NCBI GenBank assembly: GCA_036924285.1
Contig: JAYKYS010000006.1
Span: 20,558,001-20,622,000, forward strand
DNA length: 64,000 nucleotides
Reading direction: 5' to 3'
Source: Asterella californica
Taxonomy: Eukaryota > Streptophyta > Marchantiopsida > Marchantiales > Aytoniaceae
The stretch's first letter is position 1; each line of letters starts with the position of its first letter. The notes beneath the pieces were generated by a model. It worked only from the letters and a program-made list of their open reading frames with translations. It was not told where the DNA came from and did no database searches. Positions 12,131 to 33,110 of the stretch are shown one piece after another. The translations under genes and the position numbers were made by a program.

Positions 12131-13937
12131 AATATCCTCCCTCCGTATATCAGAATATATCAAGATACCAACTTCTTATGGAATCGTGGCTTTGAAGAGA
12201 AGATGACACATTTCAGGAGCACATCACTCACATACTAGTACTACCCTTAACCCCGCTCCTGATACTAGGGTCTAGGTTACTTGACCTTTCACTTTTTTCG
12301 CAAACCGCGGTTCTGAAATGCGCTTCCTTGGGTTACCTAGAGCGATTTGCGCTCGTCTGTATCATTTCCTTCGGTTTTCAAATCTGATGTGGAAGATAGC
12401 ACTAGAAAATGACTGAAAATCATTACTGATTTACAAAATGTTTTTATTTTGTTCTAAAAAATATCAGAAACGACTAATCTAAGATTTAAGTTTGTTTGTC
12501 CTCCGAAAAACTCTTTCTCAAGGGAAGAATTTTGAATTCATACAGAGAATATTTCCATTAAAGACCTTTTATAGCAGGAGGTAGGGTTTAAGCTCCATGA
12601 ATCTACTATGCGCAAGTAGAAGTTAACACATGCAAGGAAAATGAACAGAATAAGTGAGTTAAATAAATTAAATAAGAAATATCAATAAATACTGTGTGAC
12701 GGTGCTGTACTCGTATGCTTACGAGAGGTGAAGAATGTTGACGGAAGGACGGAATATTGGCTGGAGGGAGCATACATACATAGATGATGATGATGAGAGG
12801 TAGAGCGGTCACCGAAACCACCTACGTAACAGAGCGAGCGGTTTACAAAGAGAGGAAATGGGACGTACTTCACATAATCTCCCTACGTACGACAGTCATG
12901 ATCTACACCTACCCTGTTTATCCTCGTACACTTGTTCAGATCGCCCTCAATGTGTTGCCTTCCTCCTCTACACCCGTGTTTTAGATAACCCGTCGTGTGT
13001 CTCAGAGCGCTCAGACATCTTAGGCAACGGCTAAGATCACTCTCACCTGGAGCCCTCGACGGAACCGCTCCGCTCCAAGATCATGGCACGAACCAAGATA
13101 CCGGCCGACAATATTGCCGCCAATCTATCTTCCCCTTCAGTTTAAAACCTCCTTTCATCAGCCACCCGGTTCATCGAGTGGTTTCTTGATGGGCGAGGCA
13201 AGCCAACATCCCGGAAATCCCGAATATAGGGCTGGAGAAACGAGAACTGTCGGAGGTCGCAGCGGCATGAGCGCCTCCTCGCCAACCGACGACAAATGAG
13301 CAGTCAGAACGCAATCAACGACGGGACTTGTCGGGCGAGGAAACGGAGCTGTTAGACTCCATTGACTCTACCGCTAGGACTAAACTCTAACTAAAACCAG
13401 CGAGTCACAGAGTCTAACTCGGGGTAAGGTCTGTCCCGACTCCGGACACCTAACAGGATTCTGGAGATGAAGTAGTGAAGTAGAGTAACCAGTAGCAGTG
13501 CGGCGTACAAGCGAACAGTAAATCGCGTCGCGACGGGAAAAAGGAAGTTCAAGGAAGGAGAAGGAGGAGAGGGAGAGCAGAGGAGAGGTGAAGGCTCATC
13601 CTGTTGGATCTGGATCAGTGTGCCGGTGCCTCAGGCAGACCTGCGACTGTCTGTGTCTGCCTAGTCTAGTCTAGTCTAGTCCGATTCAGCCCGCTAGATT
13701 ACATCTTACACGAGTGCAGTGTTGACGAAAGCCTGATGAGTGTGTGTACCGTCGTTCGGGAATCGCGGTAGATTCCCGACAAACGTAAAACTTCGCTCAG
13801 ACGAATATGGTTTTACTCGGAATGTGTCCGAAATTTGCATTTGCGTTCGATTCCTTTCCTAAGAAACAGCAATTTTGGGAAAGTTAAGTTTTCGCCTCCG
13901 CCGTATTTCATGGGGTAGTTCTATAGCACCGTCCCCT
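12131..13937. other. Intergenic stretch, increasingly GC-rich
   Basis: No recognisable protein or RNA gene is present. A (CTAGT)4 microsatellite lies at 13661-13680. The 13.0-13.8 kb part is more GC-rich than the preceding repeats, like other gene-flanking DNA in this window. Confidence 0.4.
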
Positions 13938-14404: not shown

Positions 14405-16197
14405 TACCCTTACTTACTGAAATCAAGAGGATACGAGGACAAGAAAATTATGAGGATAGGAGCTCTAAATTAGTGAAGTAATACTCGTCATTAAATCTCC
14501 CGGAGTGGTCAGCCATCAAAGTGGAATGATGTTTTCTCGTGAGACACCAAGACGAGATCTTCACCGGAGAGGAGAATCTAGATTGCTCATCAAGTGAAGA
14601 TAAATTCCATCATGCACATTCCATCAGCCTTCCATCATAACTAATCAACGAGAAACGATAGAAGTGGTACACAACTTTAGGAGGAGATTTTCACAAGTGT
14701 GGTTAATTAACATTAATCACAGAGCAGACGTTGGAACCGGTAGATTTCGGAGCGGGAAAATTGACGACGTGCCGGTAAACCCCTTGGAAGGAATCCCCAG
14801 AATTCAAATTTATAGACGAGATATCTCCCAAGGGCCCAGTCGGCACATTCCCGAGCCGTGACCTGGAATTCTGTGCCGGTTACCTCGCCGCTGAAGATTG
14901 GCTCAAAGCGGGCACGACCCGGAATCACAAACGACAACGACTCGTTTACCGGAACTCTCGAGCATTGGCATACTGTGTTCTGGTCCGGTGCTGCTGCTGC
15001 TGGAGGTCTTCCTCCAGCGGATGAATCTGGGGTCTACTCTGTCTGGGTTCAGGTCGAGTTTGGTTGCTGCTGGTTGGTTGGGTGCTGTGAACTCTCATTC
15101 ACTGAGTAGAACTTACTGCTCGTCCTCCGTTCTTGTTGTTCGTCGTCCTCTTCCGTTGTCTGATGCTGCTGTGTTCGTTTGTCCGTGAGTAAATGTGTGA
15201 GAGAGCGAGTGTATACTGCACTGTCTTCTGCGATGTCGTTCTGGGTGATTTGGCGTGTTGTGCATTTAGGTTTATGAGACGAGGAGCGATAGACTCCGGA
15301 CTCCGGGGCCGGTTTGGTTGCCTTCGCTTGTTGGTCGAGTGGGGCATATCCTAGTCTCCTCTGAGTCGGCTGTTCAGTCCACTGCTACTACTACTACGAT
15401 CGTTCCTGTTGAGGTTTCTTTTCTGCACGTCCTCTACAACAAGCCTCGGCCTCTCGTGCAACTATACGAGTGCGCATCTCGCCTGGATGTGTGCCTTGCA
15501 TCCGATTATCTTGGCCTTGAATTCATTATTCTCCTTCCTCTTGCGATCTTACGCCACTCTGTTCACGCCCACCTAGTAGGTCGTGGTATATACGTGCGCG
15601 CACGCACCGGTCCCTTTTGGTTTTTGTTTTACGTTTGAATTTTGTTGCAAGTCCTTTTTGAGCGCATTTTTTCCCCTTGCTGGAGGTCGTGGGCAGTTAG
15701 TGCCCGCTGTGCTCAGCTCAAGCCTTGCTTTGCGTCGTCTCGAAGCGGAGACTTCAAAGCTTTCTTCACCCTCGCGGTTGGAGCCACACTGCCTGAATTT
15801 TGGGGCGGCTGGTAGAGCACAATCTACCTACGTTCCTTTTTATATAGTTTGCCCAGTTGATCTGCTAGTCCATTGCAGGGACGTCTACGAGACGATCCTC
15901 TGCAGTTGAGGCACAGACCCCGCGACGAATGATCTTGACGAATTTCCGAGTCAGGAGGATTTTAGAGATGCTGGGGCTTTACTGAGTCCTGTGAATTCTA
16001 CTGCTGCCAACTTCGACCGGTTATGGCCTCGTGGTTTTGGTCTGCTTCTATCCGAAGAGCAGTCTCTTCTTCTTCCTCCGCTGGGAGGTTTTTCTTATGA
16101 AGCATTTGTGATTCCACTGACGTCGTCGAAGTTTGCAGACGACAACACGAACGCATCTGCGTTGTAGAGTAAAGAAGAGCAAATAGAGCGGGGCAGT
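14405..16197 (+). other. Upstream region of the GT47 gene
   Basis: This GC-richer, CT/TG-rich stretch has open frames at 14858-15188 and 15318-15909 that resemble no protein. It probably holds the promoter and a long 5' untranslated region, possibly with a leader intron, of the glycosyltransferase gene starting at 16198. No TATA box could be assigned with confidence. Confidence 0.4.
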
Positions 16198-18204
16198 GTG
16201 TTAGGAAGGACAATCCCGATGCAGCTCAAAGGAGTTCGCATCATGAAGTTCCATCGGATGGTGCTCGTGCCACCGCTGTGCCTGCTGACTTTCTTGTGCC
16301 TCTGGACTTCCTCTACTCTGAGTCCCCTGAACATTTCACACCAGTCTTTTTCCCAGGATGTGCAATGCATCTCTTGTTCGGACGATTCTCCTCTCCCTGC
16401 TACCAGCGCCTTCCTTTCCCTCGCCAACTTTCCCACCACCTCCTACATCAAAGATGTTGTCCTACGTAATAATTTTCTAAAAGTTGAGGATTCCACCACG
16501 GAGCCTATTTCTAGGAGTTCGAACGACGTAGTTTCGGTCGAGGGAAATTCGGGAGGAAAGCAGGATGCTGTACTTGAAAGCAGATTAGGGAGCGGCGGCA
16601 CGACGAGCTCAGACAACTTGGAAGACAGTGAACGCTTCATAGCTTCTAGTGACAACCCGGATGATAGGCACCTCCAAAGCGAGCAGCAGGATGGACAGAA
16701 TAATGTCACCAATGCAAGCATGACTACATTGTACAGGCAACCAGAGGCCAACGAGTCCCTATCCTGGGACGTGGTGTTTAAGCATGATAATATGACTGCC
16801 GCAGATACACTGGCAGCGCAGGAGGTGGAAAAATTGATTCGTCATCTCAGAGAAACATCTCTCCCTTCTCTGAACACAACGTCGAATCAGCCTTTCGTCT
16901 TCCCGGCGTCTGACAGGACTTTGTATGTGCGAGACGGCATTCCTCAGGGAACCATAGCTCCTGAGCGATCATCTTGTGAAGGTCGATATATTTATATCTA
17001 CGACCTTCCGAGTAAGTTCAACGCTCATCTTGTTGGCCAGTGTGGCACTTTGTTGCCATGGTTCAACTTTTGTGACTACTTCCTTAACGAGGGCATGGGA
17101 TTGGTCGTTCCTACCGAAGAGCGGAATAGCCACGGGGAAGCTGTTCTTGTTCCGGAAGGGAGTTGGCATTTGACGCATCAGTATTCATTGGAGCTCATAT
17201 TCCACAGTCGTCTGAAGAATTACGATTGCCTCACGAGCGACGAGTCGAAGGCTTCCTTGTTTTATATTCCTTACTACGGAGGCCTTGATGTGATCCGTTG
17301 GCATTTCACACATAATGTGACCAACGATCACCGCGATGCTTTAACTTGGGAACTTGTGAAGTGGCTGGAGACACAGGAGGCATGGAAGAAGAACAGTGGC
17401 ATCGATCACGTTCTCGTTCTCGGAAAGATATCATGGGACTTTCGACGCCCGAGCGACAGTAATCACTGGGGAAGCAAACTTTTAGAGCTGCCGCAGATGT
17501 TTGCTCCCGCCAAACTGTTGATAGAGCGCAATCCTTGGCATGGGAATGATATCGGGGTTCCACATCCGACGTTTTTCCACCCAAAGTCGGACGATGAGAT
17601 CCGCACTTGGCAGTCGCATCTTGAGAAGTCAGACAGGAGGTACTTGGTCTCGTTTGCAGGAATGCCCAGGCCGAACATGCTGGGGAACGTGCGGGGCCAC
17701 CTAATCCAGCAGTGTTTGGACAATCCGGAGGACTGCTTCTTGCTCAGGTGCGAGAAGACTCTGTGCCTGCGGCCGGACTCAACGATGGATCTCTTCCTGC
17801 ATTCGCATTTCTGCATGCAACCTCCAGGAGATAGCCCAACGAGGCGATCAGTGTTTGACTCTCTTATCGGAGGTTGCATTCCAGTTCTATTCGATCCCTA
17901 CACAGCCTACTATCAGTATCCATGGCATTTGCCGGAGAACTCGAAGTCGTTTTCTGTCTACATCCCTTCCACACATGTCATGAAGGGAAAAGCAGATATT
18001 ATTGAGATACTGAAGAGTATCAGCGCTGAGGAGAGAGCCGCCATGCGTTCAAGGATTATTCACGACATTGTTCCTGGCCTTCTGTATTCCAAGCCAGGCA
18101 CGAAACATCCATCGTTTCGGGACGCGTTCGACATCTCGATTGAGGGTTTACTGCAAAGGGTGGCGAACCTGAGGGCAAAAGCAGGGGCAGCGGCTGGGCA
18201 ATAG
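16198..18204 (+). CDS. Exostosin-family (GT47) xyloglucan galactosyltransferase, MUR3-like
   Basis: This intact, intronless 668-residue frame encodes a type II Golgi membrane protein. A short basic N-terminus is followed by one hydrophobic segment (about residues 21-39), a low-complexity stem with several N-glycosylation sequons (NIS, NVT, NMT, NTT), and an exostosin/GT47 catalytic domain from about residue 260 to 620. Hallmarks are GRYIYIYDLPSKFN at the domain start, RRYLVSFAGMPRP near residue 480, and HFCMQPPGDSPTRRSVFDSL with GGCIPVLF near 540. The MUR3/XLT2 clade adds galactosyl (or other sugar) residues to xyloglucan side chains for the cell wall, using UDP-sugars. The exact sugar and acceptor cannot be read from sequence, because sister clades transfer galacturonic acid or arabinose. 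The first Met was taken as start; Met8, Met16 or Met21 are alternatives before or at the membrane segment. No lesion is visible. Confidence 0.9.
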   Translation: MLGRTIPMQLKGVRIMKFHRMVLVPPLCLLTFLCLWTSSTLSPLNISHQSFSQDVQCISCSDDSPLPATSAFLSLANFPTTSYIKDVVLRNNFLKVEDSTTEPISRSSNDVVSVEGNSGGKQDAVLESRLGSGGTTSSDNLEDSERFIASSDNPDDRHLQSEQQDGQNNVTNASMTTLYRQPEANESLSWDVVFKHDNMTAADTLAAQEVEKLIRHLRETSLPSLNTTSNQPFVFPASDRTLYVRDGIPQGTIAPERSSCEGRYIYIYDLPSKFNAHLVGQCGTLLPWFNFCDYFLNEGMGLVVPTEERNSHGEAVLVPEGSWHLTHQYSLELIFHSRLKNYDCLTSDESKASLFYIPYYGGLDVIRWHFTHNVTNDHRDALTWELVKWLETQEAWKKNSGIDHVLVLGKISWDFRRPSDSNHWGSKLLELPQMFAPAKLLIERNPWHGNDIGVPHPTFFHPKSDDEIRTWQSHLEKSDRRYLVSFAGMPRPNMLGNVRGHLIQQCLDNPEDCFLLRCEKTLCLRPDSTMDLFLHSHFCMQPPGDSPTRRSVFDSLIGGCIPVLFDPYTAYYQYPWHLPENSKSFSVYIPSTHVMKGKADIIEILKSISAEERAAMRSRIIHDIVPGLLYSKPGTKHPSFRDAFDISIEGLLQRVANLRAKAGAAAGQ

Positions 18205-22766: not shown

Positions 22767-22999
22767 TAATGGGTTACTTAGAGATTGAAGTGACATAGAG
22801 TGATGGAAGAAGTACTACGATATTTGGATGCATTATGAATAAGTAATGGGTTATTCAGATCGAAGTGACATAGAGTAATGGAAGAAGTACTATGGTATTT
22901 GGATGTATTATGAATAAGTAATGGGTTACATAGATCAACGTCACATAGAGTAATGAAAGAAGTACTACGGTATTTGGATTTATTATGATAAACTAATGG
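22767..22999 (+). repeat. Three-copy 75-77-bp tandem repeat
   Basis: TAATGGGTT starts at 22767, 22844, 22919 and (partial) 22994, giving periods of 77, 75 and 75. Each unit holds GACATAGAGTRATG, GAAGAAGTACTA and TATTTGGAT. It is non-coding; the copies are about 85-90% alike by eye. Confidence 0.8.
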
Positions 23000-24179
23000 G
23001 TTCCATATTCAAGGTTATTTTATGCGGGAAAAAAGAAAAATAGACATACATACGAGTAATTAATCAATTAAAACCAAATACATATCAAACTATATGTATA
23101 AACTATACACATATAGTAATTATATTCAGATTAATACATAGTTAGATTCACTTACATATAGTATACGTAGTACTCAGCTGGATTTGATAACTCAACATCA
23201 TTAATATTCTGTTTGTTTTGGATACTGAAAAAACTCACGTATGATAAAGAGAGTATAAATTATTGATAGAATAAATCACGTTGAGCATTAAAACTGAGAG
23301 TATTCGAATTATTTGAAGCATGTAATACTTAGTCAAGTTGGACTCCTTTAAACTCTTCATAAAGTTGTACATGATCAAATGGAAAGGAAGATGTAATGTG
23401 ACATATGCAGTTTTGATGTTTGATCGGTAGCTCACATGCATGCTTATTGTGGTAAAGTGTGGACTCCTTCAAAAAACATTTCCTCAATGTACATGAGATG
23501 GTGCATGAGGCTTGCAAGCGGGGTAGATCACCACGGAAGAGACGAAACAAAGTCCTTGTGAAGGATCCATACCCAACTGAGAAAAGTGGTGGACATTTCT
23601 CTACAAAATGACACAGGTTGCACAAGTACCACTTGGAGAGATACATGTATCGGGTATGTGGCTCTCGACAGAAGACTGTGTGTTAGTTCATGTATCTCGT
23701 TTTCAAGTTCTCTTGTGTTCGAAAACTTATTTTCTATCAAGTTTTTGTTATTCTTTCACTGCATTCTGAGGAATTCAGTATACACTTCTAATGTGTAGGT
23801 CATGAAGCAGTTCAGTCACAACGAGGTAACAAGCTTTCAGCCGATCATAGAGCAGATCACAACTTACTACGACGAGTGAAAGATATATGCTACAGCACTG
23901 AAAACACGTCAAACCCTTGCAGATAGTGCCGTCAAGTTTTGGATGGATATTGGACCCTTCATGGAAGGGGCAAAAAGTAGAGCAGAAGTACATATCGATC
24001 TTGAAATTGATACTCTGACCGAGATGATCCAGTGATGAAATGAGGCAAGACGATTTTTTGAAATTTTTAGAGTTAATGATATGTCTATGTAATTGAAATA
24101 ACCTTCTTACTTAAGATTACACCTTGCTTAGAGGAAAGATGATCTTAAGATCTTTTTATAAGAAGAAGTTGACTTTTTC
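23000..24179. other. AT-rich non-coding stretch
   Basis: No recognisable gene. An open frame at 23329-23646 (minus) is Cys-rich but matches nothing I know. Confidence 0.35.
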
Positions 24180-26438: not shown

Positions 26439-27602
26439 TCAAGACGTAGAGTTCTTGGAAGTGCTCAGAAGTGTCTGAGCAGTAACACCCGTCGATCGCA
26501 TCCGACGCTGCTCATCCAATCCACAGCTAACAATGCATGTCAAGCAATTCAAGTCCATTGCTTGATCCAATACTTGACGACGTGAAGTCTCCGACACCAA
26601 AGCTATTGTCATCGTATACGTAGCGAAATCCATCGCTCGTTCTCTCTCATTGGCATTGGGCTCCACCAACTGCCGTAATTGAGCATCCCACACAAACTCA
26701 GGTCCTCCGTCTCTGTAGGCATGTGACGCTGGAAAGCTTACCAAAGTGGGTAACGCTATCATGAGCCATCCCATTAGGTTCACCACTATCATGGGTGACC
26801 TATCGACGACTTTCACTACTTGAGATCGTCGTCCTGCATCCAAGATGCTATCAACCGTGATATGCGCTGGTCGTCTCATTCCATCGTGTGCACGCTTAAG
26901 CACCTCTCTCGGTAACAAGTTCGTCCACCACAACCGTGAACAATGTGCACGAGATCCTACTCTCGCTGCATCCAACAACACTACTGGTCCAACCCAAGAC
27001 CGCACTTGGTGCACACTCGTCATCATCTGTGTACGAGCATCACCCAACAAAGGAACGTTCTCCAAGATGTACGTTGGAGAATCCACTTGATGCATCTGGA
27101 AATGTCGTAAGATCTGTAACATCTCTCAGAACATCCTAGATCGCGGGTCATGTAAACCCTGACCTCTCACAGCACACGTGTGATCTTGACATGGCCATCC
27201 GACTATCACCAAGTGAATGATGCCAACAAACGTAAGATCTTGCGCCCCCAGCAGCAAAATATATGACAATAATGCTTACTGGTATCCTCTAACAGCTGGT
27301 ATGGACAACAACTCAAGATATCTCTGTACTAAACGTGCCACATGTTGCAATGAGATGCATCTCGTAATCTCATCTCTCTCCACATACAAGTATCGATGTA
27401 CTTGTATGCCTGCTTGCAATACCGCAGCCAAACCTGTGCTGATCCCTCCAAACAGCTCCAACACACATACACCCTCCTCTGAATACTGCCACACAGTGGG
27501 AGTCGTACCCAACGGTGATAAGGTCATAGGACCAATAGCAGCAACAACCCTTTGTTCCTCTACTGGTGGTACAAAGGCTTCACTCCAAGCCTGCTGTACC
27601 AA
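26439..27602 (-). pseudogene. Retroelement-borne cytosine-5 DNA methyltransferase domain
   Basis: One reading frame, interrupted only by TAA (27276-27278) and TGA (27126-27128), contains the C5-methyltransferase motifs in canonical order. Motif I is VLELFGGISTGLAAVLQAG (27408-27464, cofactor binding). Motif IV is VIVGWPCQ with the catalytic Cys codon at 27189-27191, followed by GLHDPRSRMF. Motif VI is ENV (27054-27062). Motif VIII is SRAHCSRLWWTNL, where the usual first Arg is Cys. The motif IX/X region contains ALPTLVSFP, ERERAMDF and RRQVLDQAMDLN, where Gly is expected for both Asp residues. Such enzymes methylate cytosine in DNA using S-adenosylmethionine. The order I-IV-VI-VIII-IX-X excludes the rearranged plant DRM type. 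The subtype is unresolved: motif IV reads like DNMT1 or bacterial enzymes, motif VIII more like DNMT3. The TGA fits a Trp or Arg codon changed by one transition. Confidence 0.88.
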
Positions 27603-27667
27603 CTAATCAGCATACTGCTGCAACTCTCCACTCGAACTCTAGAGTGGAACATCCAAGGCAGATGGTA

Positions 27668-28560
27668 CTAACGTAGACATACTAGACATATCCTCCACCT
27701 CCTCAAAGACCGGAGTATCCTCCGCATGGGTATGTCCTCCAACAACTCGTCCGGCCAAGTGATGGTCGAACTGAATCCTGCAACGGATGTAATCGTCCCT
27801 GGTGTAGGCTCCGTCGTCCCAACTCTAGCACTGAACCGCACTGGTAAGCGGCTCACTCGTCTCTCACCGGACTGCCAACCTAGTCTATAAGATGCTGTCT
27901 CCGTCCAATAGTCGATCACGAACCCCATAGGGTATAACACAGCACCTCCAACTAATACATCATAAGACTCTACGGCTGTAACGATGACCTTGGTCCTCAT
28001 CATGGAGCCACACGTGGGATGATCTGATCGAACTCTCACCGTCAACATCTCGCGTGTCATGTGTAGAGTTGTACCCCCTGATCCCTTAGAGATGTCTGCA
28101 ACTGGAATGGACATCTCTCCACCTCAGACTTCTTCAGACCCAAATCAATACACGCCGCCTTCCTCAACATCAACGGTTGGGCTCCAGAGTCTAACAAGAC
28201 CTTCTGTGGTCGATACACCTTCCTTGAAGATGCCACCAAACAGAAGATACCACTTCTGTTGTTCAACAACACCACACCTGGTGCCAAACCAACACGGTCA
28301 ATCGCCGGCCTAGCTGATAACTCATCTAACCTAGCAGCCGCCGCTTGCCAAGTACCACTAGTAGCTGTCTTGATCCTTGACTTCATGGACACATCTACCG
28401 CCTCTCGCTGAACCACCTCCGCACTAGAGGTAACAACATCCTCGTCCTCATTGAACGTGACAACCAGTTGGAACACTGGAGCTAAGCTGACTCCCAATGC
28501 TTTCATATTCGTGGCTGAAAATAGTGGGGCTCGCAAAACTGCTGTAGCCGCCCCCAACAT
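27668..28560 (-). pseudogene. Retroelement aspartic protease region
   Basis: The segment VLLDSGAQPLMLRKAA has the DSG catalytic triad of retropepsins (DSG codons at 28183-28191), followed by a hydrophobic/charged stretch typical of the fold. The frame changes between about 28060 and 28110. The continuation (TREMLTVRVRSDHP, VIVTAVESYDVLVGGAVLYP, DYWTETASYRLGWQ) is the second half of the protease domain plus a linker to the methyltransferase. The protein would normally cut the Gag-Pol polyprotein. The frameshift inactivates it. It lies directly upstream of the methyltransferase domain, so in an intact element the two probably belonged to one polyprotein. Confidence 0.75.
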
Positions 28561-28706
28561 CGGATTCGAGCCGCATCCACAGACGTCGAGGGTGGACTCA
28601 CATCACACCCACTCTTGGATGTCGATATCTCCAACTCTACTGCACCATCGACAGACCGTTTAAGAACCATAGATGTGATCCTCAACGCCTCCGATAACTT
28701 GAACGA

Positions 28707-30381
28707 CTAGAGAAGCCTGGTCTGTCTATCAGCCTCCCCGCGTTGTGGATCCAACTCCACTGACGCACCTCGTGGCTCATAGGCACGTACTGCACCTCTA
28801 GTCACTGCCGCAGATGTCTCAATCTGCGTCACGCCAGCCATGAAGTCGAAGTCACCTCCTTCTCTTCCATAAGACGTGGAAGCTTCTGTTCCACTTGACC
28901 TCCGCTGGACCATAGCCATACTAGCTATCCTCTGCTCCAACTGCTCAATCCGAGCAGCCATACCTGCTTCTGACGTCGTAGCAGGCGGTGGACCGACTGG
29001 TCCTCTCCTAGGTGCTGGACCTCTACCTCCAGCTCGACCACCATGGCCTCCCTGAGCTCCTCCGTCTCGTCCACGATCAGCCTTCTCTTGCCGCAACTCG
29101 AGGAGGAGATCAAAACAACGGTCACTACTGTGACCAGGTCGTCCGCAATGCTCACATTGCCTAAGTACTGCTTGAGACGTCCCTGGCGTCTCATAACCAC
29201 CTCTTCTCTGTAGATAGTCTTTTTGCTGATGAGGACCATCACACGTCCAGCAAGGACCCGCTTGCTGCTGACTAGAGAAGGACGGCATGGACTTCTGCCC
29301 ACCAGATCCTCCAACACCTCCCTAAGATCGTGACTGCTTCGCACGATCCTTACCACCACCACCACCACGCTGTTGCGTAACCTGTGATCCTCGAGAAGAG
29401 GTGGTCGGTCCCTGTGGTGTCTCCTTGCTGAACCCAGCAACCACCACCCTCTCCTCCACCATGTTGAGCTCAATCTGCTCAGCCAGACCAAAGACAACCG
29501 CCAACGTCGGAGCAGTATCTCTAAGGAGAGTAGCATCTCTAACTCTCTTACGCATCTCCCTGTCTAGTATCTCATACCAGAAGTGGACTGCATGTGGTTC
29601 CGTCACTTCTTGGGTAACGCTGATCAATCGTCTCATGCGAGTAAATGCCTCGCGTAGGCTCTCTCCAGTCTTGCGCTGGAACTCCTGTAGATCCTCAACT
29701 TGTCGGTCCACACACCCTAATAGTTCTTCCTCAAACACTTGAAGAACTGAACCACAAGGTTAAACCCTGGTGGTATCTCGCTCACACTACCACCTGCTCC
29801 ACTACTAGTGGACGCACCGCCGGTAGTAGATACTTCGTCATCTGTGGAGGTACCACTGCTACTGGCATCCAAACTCGTAAGTGCTACGCCTCCTAAAACT
29901 GCGCCAGTAGTGATAGAAACGTAGTTGGGAGACCAATGTTGTCTTCACAACTCAATCTTCATACTGTAGTCTCGCCGGAAATCATGATAATCGTCCATCG
30001 GCGGTCCCTTCAAGTGTTGGAACAAATCCTTCCACGTCATGAAAGATGTAAACAGCTATGAGTTCTGCATCTGTTGCAAATCGCACCAACTGTCGAACTC
30101 TTGGATGAAGTCATTCAGCTCGATGATACCACTGTATCTGAATAACGTCGAGGTCCTTTCGTGACCTCATAGATCTCGTCCATGTCCCACAACAACGGTG
30201 TGGTGACACCTGACTCACCACCAGAAAACACGCTATCTGCGTCTGACTCGTCCTCTGGAACAACCGATGGTAATGATGTAGATAGTCGATACCTCACCCC
30301 ACTCCGTGTATACTCACTGTCCGAGAAGTCCTCACCATAACCTCCTGAGAACTCCGTGATGAGAGAATCTCGATAACACAC
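28707..30381 (-). pseudogene. Retroelement gag with CCHC zinc knuckles
   Basis: The central gag segment (29322-29738) shows REAFTRMRRLISV and ATLLRDTAPTLAVVFGLAEQ, typical of the retrotransposon gag domain. It reads in frame through one TAG (29322-29324) into a nucleocapsid part with a complete CCHC knuckle, CEHCGRPGHSSDRC, and a damaged one, CWTCDGPHQQKDY, whose last Cys is Tyr. The N-terminal part (LFRYSGIIELNDFIQEFDSW, near 30070-30140) lies in another frame, as does a possible start segment at 30115-30381, so frameshifts exist. Gag would package the element RNA in virus-like particles. The first and last segments are assigned by position and composition only. Confidence 0.75.
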
Positions 30382-31991
30382 TCTCCGAAATCTCTATCAT
30401 CACTATAACCACCCCTTGCCTAACTCCGCTCCTACTGAGCTCACCTATCTCTTACTAGGACGGTCAAGGTAAGGACAACATGTACCTGCCATCACCACAA
30501 GTAGCCTCTCAAGGTCTGTTGGTCGTCACTCCAACCGCATCGTGAGAGAAACAAAGATAGTCTGACTGTTCTACAACTCCAGCCTCACTACCGACAGCAC
30601 AATGGAGTGAACTCACTCCGGAAATCAAGCGCCAACACAAGCAAACGCGGCGCACAAACAGGAAGCAAAATATGGAGGGGTTCCAACCACAAGAAGTCCA
30701 AACAATAACCTTCCACACTCAAACATCCACATAAAGAGAAACCCAACTCCACCCGGACTGACGTCTCCTCTTCGGTGATCACATGCACAATATATGATCA
30801 CCCATCGTCGTAACTGCTACTGAAGGTCATTAACTAGATGTCCACACCTCTAGTAGCTCCAAAAATCTCTACGTGGTAGCTCTACTAGCTCACTCAAGAC
30901 AACTGTCACCAACTGCCTTCAGTATGCGTCTCTACGGTATAGACAAACACTACCACAACTATAGCTTCCCCCTAATACTGTGGGGTCACCTTACCACTCC
31001 TCTAGGAACGTGCGAGAAGGTCTCCTACTACCTTATACAAGTCCATAAGTACTTGCACGCATCTCTATAAGACACCAAGAGCTATTGGTCTAGTGATAAA
31101 GCCAAAGCTAAGACTACAGAGTTAAGTGTCCAAGTCCAGAAATAGTGTTGGGAGGGGTGACCAGCAGGTTTTACACTTCCCACACAACTGAAACTTGCAT
31201 ACCTCTCTCACGCATGCCAGCAAGCTGGCTTACGGCGGGCTCAGGCTCCGCTCCGCCTCCGCACTCATGCACCTCTGCTCCTCGAAGCCTCACACGGCAG
31301 CGAACTTCGACATGCCATAACTTCTTCGATGCTCAGTCAAACTCCACGAAACTTGATGCCTTACAATCGTCTCTTCAATGCGCTTCCAATGAGCCCACTC
31401 CGGTCTGACATTGACAAGTACTCCGTCTGCCACGTCCAAACGTGCATTCCGGCCCGAACAAGTCACTTCAAGAACATTCTGTAAAATTTCTGCAGCGCTT
31501 CCGCATGACAGAAAATCTCCACTCGACCCCACAACAGCAATCAATCTGCGAACAGCAAGATACCATGCGCCCATACACACCTCGATCGCAGGTCCAATCA
31601 ATCAAGCACGAACGACAACGCCCGAAGATACCACCGGACGATTTCAAATCAGCGAGCTCTTACTGAACTCCGTCTCGAGCTGCACTAAGTTTTTCAAGTA
31701 ATCTGAACAGAGAAATTATCATCTCCAACACTACAACAAAGATTACTCACAAACGGTCAAGCCAAACTCACTCTAAACACGAAGAGAATCCGGGTTACAC
31801 TCAACTAGACTATCCACCATAGCCTAGAGCTTGAAGACTCAACTTGAAGAATTAAGGTCTCCAAGCCCTACCTGCCAAGTATACCTCTAGTGGGCTCTCC
31901 CACCAACTCGTCCTAACGGCACTAACGGCCTCATCGGAGTTCGTCACTTCGCACTCGGTCAACCTAGCCGGGATACCAAACTGACGTGACA
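30382..31991 (-). repeat. Probable 5' LTR/leader of the retroelement
   Basis: The minus-strand sequence beginning TGTCACGTCAGTTTGGTATC at 31991 is similar over at least 50 bases to that beginning at 33178. Both include CGGCTA, GTTGACCGAG and, further in, related blocks. TG starts and TGTCAC words are typical of plant Ty3/gypsy LTRs. The 3' end of the LTR and the primer-binding site were not located, so the LTR/leader boundary is unknown. Short open frames inside look incidental. Confidence 0.45.
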
Positions 31992-33110
31992 ATGATTCCA
32001 AGGCTGAGGCAAGCCACTATTGTCAAAAACTAAAATTTCTTTTTGAGGGAAAGAAGCGCCCAACGATCTGGTTCTTTTGAATCTGAATTCGTCGGAAATA
32101 GACGTCGAACGACGTCACAATCCGGTTGTGCAACTAATCTGGGTAGTCCAAAGTTCAAGAAACGCTAAACGGGATTGTTGAAAATGGACGGGTCTGGGTT
32201 ACTCAGGTCGTTGTACGAAGAGGGGGGTTTCAATCTCGAACTGGCAGGGAGAGAGAGATTGCAGTGCAGGGATGGAGCGAGCCGGTTTGGAAACCATCGG
32301 CAGAAAGGATAAGAGAAGGGATGACACATGCCAGTGTTGGTTTTCATGTTCTTTTGTGACGACCATGGCAACTTGTTAGGCTGGTTTCGCACTGGGTTAG
32401 AGTACCTGATCGAGTTGAGACTCAAGTAAGACAGAGCAAGGAACAAAAGCTACACTAATGATATCTCAACTATTTCTGAGCTATTTCTACTCATCTTCCA
32501 GATTTATACCAATAGGAGAAATATTGCGATCAGTTGATCGAGTTGAACTGACGGTTGTCATATCATTGGAGAAAACTTGAAAAGGAAAAGATATATATTC
32601 TGTGTATTTTTCCAAACTTTCCAAACTTTTAAGATTTTGCATTGCGAATTTACTTCAGAGAAACAATATGTTAAGGTGATTAAATATTTTATTGTGTTCT
32701 AAAACACATCTTCTGGATTCCAGATACACATAAGGAAGTATATATGTTGTTCAATCTAGAGGTGGACTTGTACATGAAATAGTTCTGTAAGGATCCGCAA
32801 CCATCCAGATCTTTTTCTCCAGAATTTCACTTGAAAAGGTAAGCTTTTGGACCGATGATTACATGCAGTTTCTAGTATATAAAGTGTTGCATATATACTC
32901 ACTTCATCTTATCTGTCGTGTGCATCAACATTGCTACACAACATACATCGCTATCAGAGATACATCACACATACACATAACACATGAACAATGTCATACA
33001 CATACACAAGAATATCACAATGTGATAAACGGTATGTACTCACTCCACCATGTAACACGAGTGATAAACTATATGTATTCACTCCATCATGCCAACCGGC
33101 ACTAAACAAT
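31992..33110. other. AT-rich spacer between LTR-like fragments
   Basis: No gene is recognised. CA-rich simple sequence (CACATACACATAACACATGA and similar) lies at about 32960-33010. Two copies of a GATAAACNRTATGTAYTCACTCCA unit occur at about 33013 and 33062. Confidence 0.4.

What the first reader, a model, noticed from the sequence alone, without database searches (positions are those of the whole stretch)
26439..28560. A retroelement that carries its own cytosine DNA methyltransferase
Gag zinc knuckles and a DSG protease lie immediately upstream, on the same strand, of a domain with C5-methyltransferase motifs I, IV (PCQ), VI (ENV), VIII, IX and X in order. A mobile element that encodes the host's own silencing chemistry could self-methylate, hide from, or reprogramme host silencing. 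Such fusions are reported in charophytes and dinoflagellates; seeing one in what looks like land-plant DNA would widen that picture. Here the domain follows the protease.
Basis: partly seen in the sequence, partly recalled or inferred. Interest (0 to 1): 0.9.

Follow-up and report, generated by a model that had tools for sequence, protein, structure and literature searches.

The report
Liverwort retrotransposon carrying a DNA methyltransferase
The window holds a dead, cut-off copy of a jumping gene that is abundant in this liverwort genome and carries its own DNA-methylating enzyme, kept working by selection; such elements were described from algae, and one review says that land plants lack them.

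Summary
Confirmed and extended. Window 31991-26459 (minus strand) is a decayed, 3'-truncated copy of a Ty3/gypsy-type retrotransposon with gag, protease and a DNMT3-like cytosine methyltransferase. The host is probably a liverwort; its genome is held, and the junction between the element's two frames occurs there 1,675 times. Ten copies chosen for an open ORF1 show gag-CCHC-protease-DNMT (about 1370 aa), then in-frame UAG-CAGUCA, which fits the CAR-YYA readthrough signal (10 of 10). ORF2, open throughout in 5 of 10, holds RT, RNase H, integrase and a PHD finger. Ends are TGTC...GACA with A-coding-B-A-B repeats, as reported for Klebsormidium's KnitGypsy-Dnmt3. The DNMT is under purifying selection (dN/dS 0.17-0.20; wrong frames 1.1-2.1); the window copy is relaxed (0.63). 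Marchantia has the same order; Sphagnum, Calypogeia and Riccia show parts. A related DNMT lies between RNase H and integrase in a protein labelled Chrzof1 (a green alga). This is a known kind (de Mendoza 2018) in a lineage where I found no report, with the enzyme on the gag side of a leaky stop. Self-methylation of its cDNA is inferred, not shown.

The parts
26459..31991 (-). Remnant of a DNMT-carrying Ty3/gypsy retrotransposon, 5' part only (terminal repeat A, leader, gag, CCHC, protease, DNMT)
   Evidence: blastn to intact copy L025: 31248-26459 at 91% and 31991-31290 at 87%
31699..31991 (-). 5' terminal repeat A, begins TGTCACGT; about 294 bp in intact copies
29260..30372 (-). gag part of ORF1 (frame starts at about 30372, first Met of the conserved part about 30183)
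   Evidence: mapping to ORF1 of L025; weak Retrotrans_gag profile hit below cut-off
29117..29252 (-). Two CCHC zinc knuckles; the first has lost its last Cys here
   Evidence: zf-CCHC 13.7 bits, below cut-off
27835..28197 (-). Aspartic protease (LLDSGA), broken by a single-base deletion
   Evidence: gag-asp_proteas 13.8 bits, below cut-off
26459..27521 (-). DNMT3-like C5 cytosine methyltransferase domain; motif I about 27470, IV (PCQ) about 27194, VI (ENV) about 27062, VIII about 26957, IX about 26657, X about 26567; two in-frame stops (ORF1 codons 1036 and 1086)
32913..33021 (-). Lone B terminal repeat ending in GACA, the 3' end of another copy of the family
   Evidence: 88% to both B repeats of L026 (sequence)

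Best explanation
The window holds a dead 5' part of a Ty3/gypsy-type retrotransposon family that captured a DNMT3-type cytosine methyltransferase and still keeps it working. Intact copies make Gag-protease-DNMT as the main product, and by occasional readthrough of a leaky UAG a longer Gag-protease-DNMT-RT-RNaseH-integrase-PHD protein. The protease would cut these, so DNMT would be made in gag-like amounts inside the particle with the genomic RNA and RT. Most likely the enzyme methylates the element's own cDNA (probably at CG) before or during integration, and the PHD finger on the integrase reads histone H3 at the target, so a new copy arrives already marked like silent host DNA and escapes defences against naked foreign DNA, or keeps harm to the host low. 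Shown: architecture, leaky-stop context, copy number, youth of seven measured copies, purifying selection on DNMT. Inferred: readthrough itself, proteolytic release, packaging, cDNA as substrate, the benefit. Subjective odds: DNMT-carrying Ty3/gypsy element 0.98; gag-side expression with programmed readthrough 0.85; own cDNA as main substrate 0.5.
For: DNMT identity; the AlphaFold model of relative P0001 (mean pLDDT 79.7) is closest to DNMT3A chains (TMt about 0.83). Copies: 16 of the 123 scored PF00145 matches sit in open frames of 1367-1381 aa; 10 of these 16 fetched; 9 of 10 have a frame of 305 aa or more starting right after the stop, and 5 of 10 continue it unbroken for 701-705 aa more in the next stretch. 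UAG CAGUCA in 10 of 10 and 6 of 6 further copies; of 815 junctions with flanks fixed and the codon free, the 100 listed are 96 UAG, 3 UAA, 1 AAG. CAR-YYA after UAG is the known plant readthrough signal (PMC2754532, passages). ORF2 of L025/L026 carries RVT_1, RT_RNaseH, Integrase_H2C2, rve and PHD above cut-off; RT closest to Ty3, E 5.5e-49. A repeats 98.6-100% identical in 7 of 10 copies; TG..CA-type ends and 4-bp duplications in 6 of 7, 3 of 4 bases in the 7th (read by eye). dN/dS of DNMT 0.178 (bootstrap 0.12-0.23) in 10 copies and 0.197 (0.14-0.25) in 27 stop-free copies; gag 0.21, protease part 0.25, stretch after DNMT 0.66, RT 0.09, PHD 0.07 with n=5; between sub-families DNMT 0.172 and protease 0.12, against 1.1 and 2.1 for DNMT in the two wrong frames.
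Against: No methylation, expression or protein data here. The window copy itself is dead and its profile score barely passes. P0258 and P0259 have ECQ in place of PCQ, P0118 EHV in place of ENV, and DNMT scores of P0263 and P0265 lie below Pfam's cut-off, so not every relative need be active. dN/dS was measured on copies chosen for open frames. The 9-base UAG-CARYYA word by itself is not rare (0.53 expected in 10 kb, 75 of 200 shuffles have one): only its place at the end of ORF1 counts. The window copy's decay (143 of 189 changes C>T/G>A) is about equal in CG, CHG and CHH contexts, so it gives no sign of a CG-specific self-methylation mark. PHD specificity is untested.
Confidence: 0.75

Rival explanations
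1. The DNMT fragment is a host gene or retrocopy that merely landed next to a gag-protease fragment.
For: In the window alone RT and integrase are missing, so the linkage could have been chance.
Against: Same order in 16 of 16 other copies and in Marchantia, Sphagnum and Calypogeia proteins; 1,675 ORF1/ORF2 junctions genome-wide; the host DNMT3-like gene (L001) lies on the other side of a 100/99 branch.
Confidence: 0.01
2. The DNMT is kept to methylate host chromatin or competing elements or viruses rather than the element's own cDNA (an antiviral role is speculated in PMC6338049).
For: The domain is under selection; the PHD could bring it to host chromatin; the antiviral idea is in print (PMC6338049, passages).
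Against: Gag-side placement suggests packaging in the particle (inference); de Mendoza et al. [quoted passage not shown]
Confidence: 0.2
3. The domain acts on RNA or as a nucleic-acid-binding packaging factor, its DNA methylation activity being unused.
For: De Mendoza et al. raise RNA methylation for SymbioLINE-Dnmt (PMC5890265); its place next to gag would suit RNA packaging.
Against: The best PDB hits by sequence and fold are DNMT3 chains; motif IV Cys and motif VI Glu are kept in every row that covers them; SymbioDIRS-Dnmt3 enzymes can methylate CGs (PMC5890265 discussion).
Confidence: 0.12
4. The UAG is not a programmed readthrough signal; pol is reached by splicing or internal initiation, or the stop is a fixed defect.
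For: No translation data; Marchantia gene models P0247 and P0073 run from DNMT into pol parts without a stop, probably by predicted splicing; P0258 has no stop there at all.
Against: UAG-CARYYA in 16 of 16 copies and UAG in 96 of 100 listed junctions, ORF2 in the same frame right after it, ORF2 under strong selection.
Confidence: 0.12

Closest known systems
KnitGypsy-Dnmt3 of Klebsormidium nitens (de Mendoza et al. 2018, PMC5890265; sections on Symbiodinium retrotransposons, charophytes and discussion read)
   Same: Gypsy domain set plus an unrearranged Dnmt3-type DNMT in the polyprotein; repeats in the DIRS-like A-coding-B-A-B order; DNMT under purifying selection (their Ka/Ks < 0.2; ours 0.17-0.20)
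   Different: Host is a land plant; DNMT lies with gag-protease upstream of a leaky UAG, whereas theirs is described as in the Pol polyprotein ORF; PHD not mentioned in the main text (word search; figure and supplement not seen); no Klebsormidium sequence at hand, so kinship untested
DNMT-carrying elements P0263 (label Chrzof1, read as Chromochloris zofingiensis) and unnamed P0260-P0262, P0264-P0266, P0268, P0101
   Same: Related DNMT and gypsy RT; integrase followed by a PHD finger in 5 of 9 (P0260, P0261, P0263, P0264, P0265; three of the other four end before that point)
   Different: DNMT lies between RNase H and integrase; they form one clade in the DNMT tree (100/96) and the six with RT in the RT tree (98/98)
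SymbioDIRS-Dnmt3 and SymbioLINE-Dnmt of Symbiodinium (PMC5890265)
   Same: Retroelement with its own DNMT; split repeats in the DIRS type
   Different: Tyrosine recombinase or LINE machinery instead of a DDE integrase
Tf1-type self-primed gypsy elements (recalled)
   Same: 11-base complement between the site just after repeat A and an inner stretch of A
   Different: Only the complementarity was tested, not priming

Membership tests
Ty3/gypsy LTR retrotransposons | Gypsy-type RT and order RT-RNaseH-integrase | tested here: met
   RT best to Ty3 4ol8; domain order in L025/L026
Ty3/gypsy LTR retrotransposons | DDE integrase with TG..CA ends and short target duplication | tested here: met
   rve in ORF2; 4-bp duplication in 6 of 7 copies
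Ty3/gypsy LTR retrotransposons | Plain pair of LTRs at the two ends | tested here: not met
   Ends are A and B, with B-A-B at the 3' side
KnitGypsy-Dnmt3 type | Gypsy domains with unrearranged Dnmt3 domain | tested here: met
   Motif order I, IV, VI, VIII, IX, X
KnitGypsy-Dnmt3 type | A-coding-B-A-B repeats | tested here: met
   against PMC5890265
KnitGypsy-Dnmt3 type | DNMT in the Pol polyprotein ORF | tested here: inconclusive
   Here DNMT ends ORF1, before a leaky UAG; it would be in the readthrough Gag-Pol
KnitGypsy-Dnmt3 type | Common descent with the Klebsormidium copies | not testable with these tools
   No Klebsormidium name appeared in the protein lists
DNMT3 family | Closest to DNMT3 by sequence and fold, unpermuted | tested here: met
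   (PDB only)
DNMT3 family | De novo DNA methylation activity | not testable with these tools
   Needs an assay
DRM (plant rearranged DNMT3) | Motifs VI-X before I-IV | tested here: not met
   Host DRM-like L002 is permuted, the element's domain is not
DIRS retrotransposons | Tyrosine recombinase | tested here: not met
   rve integrase in ORF2; no tyrosine recombinase among the Pfam hits of ORF1 and ORF2 of L025/L026

The most novel reading that the evidence does not exclude
One old capture of Dnmt3 by a gypsy element with circle-like split repeats, in the ancestor of green plants or an early donor, gave a lineage that carries both a methylation writer (DNMT) and a histone reader (PHD). The writer later moved once between two places in the polyprotein (before RT; before integrase), and in bryophytes it was placed on the gag side of a leaky stop so that it is packed in bulk and pre-methylates each new copy. 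The element sets its own chromatin state on arrival and has stayed abundant in a land plant.
Probability: 0.3. Interest if true: 0.85.

Novelty: new variant of a known kind. Interest (0 to 1): 0.64.

Why it matters
[quoted passage not shown] Here a land plant carries 1,675 junctions of such an element; the seven copies whose repeats could be compared are young, and the enzyme is under selection. Marchantia polymorpha, a laboratory model, has the same family, so the open question of why a transposon would carry the host's silencing chemistry becomes testable in a laboratory plant.

Tried and rejected
Rejected: a host gene beside gag (paralogues and tree). Rejected: DRM origin (motif order). Looked for and not found: RT or integrase of this copy elsewhere in the window (the relatives used there held few RT or integrase parts; L025/L026 also matched only the 5' part and repeats); a pair of terminal repeats for this copy. 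A possible CC-context bias of C>T in the window copy was weak in the non-coding part and not pursued; the lack of a CG preference held at two thresholds. No Klebsormidium name reached the lists, so its kinship stays open. Literature searches that could have shown a prior report in bryophytes; no title or abstract in the listings reports one, but only openly licensed PMC text was searched, I saw passages or named sections of six papers, and supplements were not seen. PMC12344493 says that some DNMT3s lie in retrotransposons 'as previously reported in streptophytes', and its data set may include bryophyte copies. PMC6338049 names green algae among lineages with DAM- or DCM-encoding retrotransposons, so the chlorophyte case may not be new. 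Rfam found nothing at its curated thresholds in the window. dN/dS pairs with synonymous difference under 0.02 were left out; of 36 mapped loci, 8 with stops and the short L047 were left out of the 27-copy figure.

Full report
What is there. On the minus strand, window 31991-26459 is the 5' part of a retrotransposon: terminal repeat A (31991-31699), leader, gag, two CCHC knuckles (about 29252-29117), protease (DSG about 28197) and a cytosine methyltransferase domain (about 27521-26459). The methyltransferase stretch scores 22.4 bits against Pfam DNA_methylase with stops read as X, just over the cut-off, and E 2.8e-8 against DNMT3A in the PDB. 171 proteins match it. The copy is dead: 9 in-frame stops, 5 single-base deletions and one of 6 bases in ORF1, and an end 185 bases before the ORF1 stop. 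All 9 stops are explained by C>T or G>A relative to codons found in intact copies; 143 of 189 differences at sites where ten copies agree are of that kind, without preference for CG (rates 0.083 CG, 0.115 CHG, 0.092 CHH at a looser threshold).

Host. A single-frame GT47 gene at 16168-18201 is 77% identical to Marchantia paleacea, 68 and 63% to the best Riccia proteins and 68% over 69% of its length to Calypogeia, so the host is probably a complex thalloid liverwort. The window lies in a held genome of 516.7 Mb.

The living family. A PF00145 search of that genome scored 123 of 1250 candidates; 16 of the 123 sit in open frames of 1367-1381 aa. Four of the 123 begin at the first positions of the profile; two of those were examined and look like host genes, a DNMT3 split over two frames (L001) and a permuted DRM (L002) (classed by eye). 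Ten of the 16 were fetched with flanks. Each has ORF1 of 1367-1381 aa; 9 of 10 have a frame of 305 aa or more starting directly after the stop in the same frame, L009 not; 5 of 10 continue it unbroken for 701-705 aa in the next stretch. The stop is UAG followed by CAGUCA in 10 of 10 and in 6 of 6 further copies. The hexamer fits CAR-YYA, described as essential for readthrough at UAG in plants (PMC2754532, passages; that paper also mentions readthrough candidates among rice gypsy elements, so readthrough in plant gypsy elements is not new). The word itself is not rare, 0.53 expected per 10 kb; its place is what counts. Genome-wide the junction pattern occurs 812+863 times with up to 3 mismatches, control 0. 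With flanks fixed and the codon left free, 815 places match; the 100 listed are 96 UAG, 3 UAA, 1 AAG. ORF2 of L025/L026 holds RVT_1, RT_RNaseH, Integrase_H2C2, rve and a C-terminal PHD finger. RT is nearest Ty3; the PHD is nearest PHDs of CHD4, KMT2C, DPF and KDM5 proteins, several of which bind H3 tails unmodified at K4 (recalled).

Ends. In 7 of 10 copies two A repeats of about 294 bp are 98.6-100% identical; in the other three the pair was not found. The 3' side reads B-A-B, the outer ends are TGTC and GACA (changed to GATA in L022), and 4-bp duplications flank 6 of 7 copies, the seventh matching at 3 of 4 bases (read by eye). This A-coding-B-A-B order with gypsy domains is what de Mendoza et al. 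report for KnitGypsy-Dnmt3 (PMC5890265). The inner junction GACA-GC-TGTC looks like two cDNA ends joined, which would fit integration from a two-repeat circle (inference). The 11 bases after A are the exact complement of a stretch inside A (two matches, 0.01 expected), as in Tf1-type self-priming (recalled).

Selection. Pooled pairwise dN/dS in ten copies: gag 0.21, CCHC part 0.20, protease part 0.25, DNMT 0.178 (bootstrap 0.12-0.23), stretch after DNMT 0.66; DNMT in 27 stop-free copies 0.197 (0.14-0.25); RT 0.09 (10 loci that passed the filter); RNase H 0.16, integrase core 0.03, integrase C-terminus 0.38 and PHD 0.07 (n=5 each, few sites). Between sub-families the DNMT gives 0.172 and the protease 0.120 in frame, against 1.12 and 2.11 (DNMT) and 0.97 and 2.43 (protease) in the wrong frames. 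The window copy against intact ones gives 0.63 for DNMT. So the DNMT is kept about as firmly as gag and protease, less firmly than RT and integrase core, and the window copy has been decaying without that constraint. Copies were chosen for open frames, which favours low values somewhat.

Relatives. Sphagnum troendelagicum P0012 and Calypogeia P0057 carry protease and DNMT in one protein collinear with the window; Marchantia P0047 and P0241 carry gag, CCHC and DNMT; Riccia P0056 runs from DNMT into the start of RT (by eye); Marchantia P0247 and P0253 run DNMT, RT, RNase H; P0073 joins DNMT pieces, the integrase end (by eye) and PHD. P0258 (unnamed) has CCHC, protease, DNMT, RT, RNase H and integrase in one frame. 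In P0263 (label Chrzof1, read as Chromochloris) and in P0260, P0261, P0262, P0264, P0265, P0266, P0268 the DNMT follows RNase H; in P0101 it precedes the integrase; the DNMT scores of P0263 and P0265 lie below the Pfam cut-off. In a tree of 34 rows, a selection from the hits, the 32 element DNMTs are separated from the host DNMT3-like gene and a DNMT3A fragment (100/99), the bryophyte group of 11 rows (with three unnamed rows) is one clade (100/100) and the RNaseH-DNMT-integrase layout one clade (100/96); the RT tree of 12 rows agrees (98/98). This suits one capture and one relocation, but two captures from related donors are not excluded: only two non-element rows were in the DNMT tree, the host row has a long branch, and only Ty3 served as RT outgroup. 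P0255 and P0257 were put in the PR-DNMT group by order and kinship, without a protease profile hit.

Catalytic make-up. Motif IV Cys and motif VI Glu are kept in all rows of that set that cover them; P0258 and P0259 read ECQ, P0038 PCY, P0118 EHV, and some rows of the second layout change the V of ENV. The AlphaFold model of P0001 (mean pLDDT 79.7, pTM 0.83) matches DNMT3A chains best (E about 5e-17, TMt about 0.83).

How it probably works. Gag-protease-DNMT would be the main product and the readthrough product adds RT to PHD. That would put DNMT in the particle in gag-like amounts, where double-stranded cDNA is its natural substrate; de Mendoza et al. showed that other retrotransposon DNMTs methylate CG de novo and proposed cDNA methylation (PMC5890265 abstract and discussion). 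The PHD could steer integration by H3 state. Architecture and selection are shown; readthrough, packaging, substrate and benefit are inferred.

Novelty. The kind is known. For these I found no report in the searches named under Tried and rejected: presence in land plants, the gag-side place before a leaky UAG, the PHD on the integrase, and the second layout. PMC6338049 says such transposons are not present in land plants such as tracheophytes, but names green algae among lineages that have DAM- or DCM-encoding retrotransposons; PMC12344493 speaks of streptophytes, citing de Mendoza.

Noticed in passing
window 33021-32913 (-): Lone B terminal repeat of the same family, 0.9 kb from this copy's A repeat, with no A or internal part beside it.
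   Followed up: partly
window 22782-23006 (+): 75-bp unit repeated three times in tandem, 79-100% identical.
   Followed up: no
window 16168-18201 (+): Single-frame 678-aa exostosin/GT47 (xyloglucan galactosyltransferase-like) gene, used to place the host.
   Followed up: yes
L025 2930-2940 and 3085-3095: Perfect 11-base complement between the site just after repeat A and the inside of A, suggesting Tf1-like self-priming; mutated in the window copy.
   Followed up: partly
L016-L028, inner B-A junction: GACA-GC-TGTC between B and A looks like joined cDNA ends; a DDE integrase with split direct repeats is an odd pairing that may imply a circular intermediate.
   Followed up: partly
window copy, ORF1 (30372-26459): Decay is 76% C>T/G>A with about equal rates in CG, CHG and CHH, unlike a CG-only methylation decay.
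   Followed up: partly
P0263 (label Chrzof1): A probably chlorophyte element with DNMT between RNase H and integrase, a G-patch domain and a PHD finger.
   Followed up: partly
window 12249-12597: 68% match to the flank of another copy (L026 3423-3787), probably an unrelated repeat.
   Followed up: no
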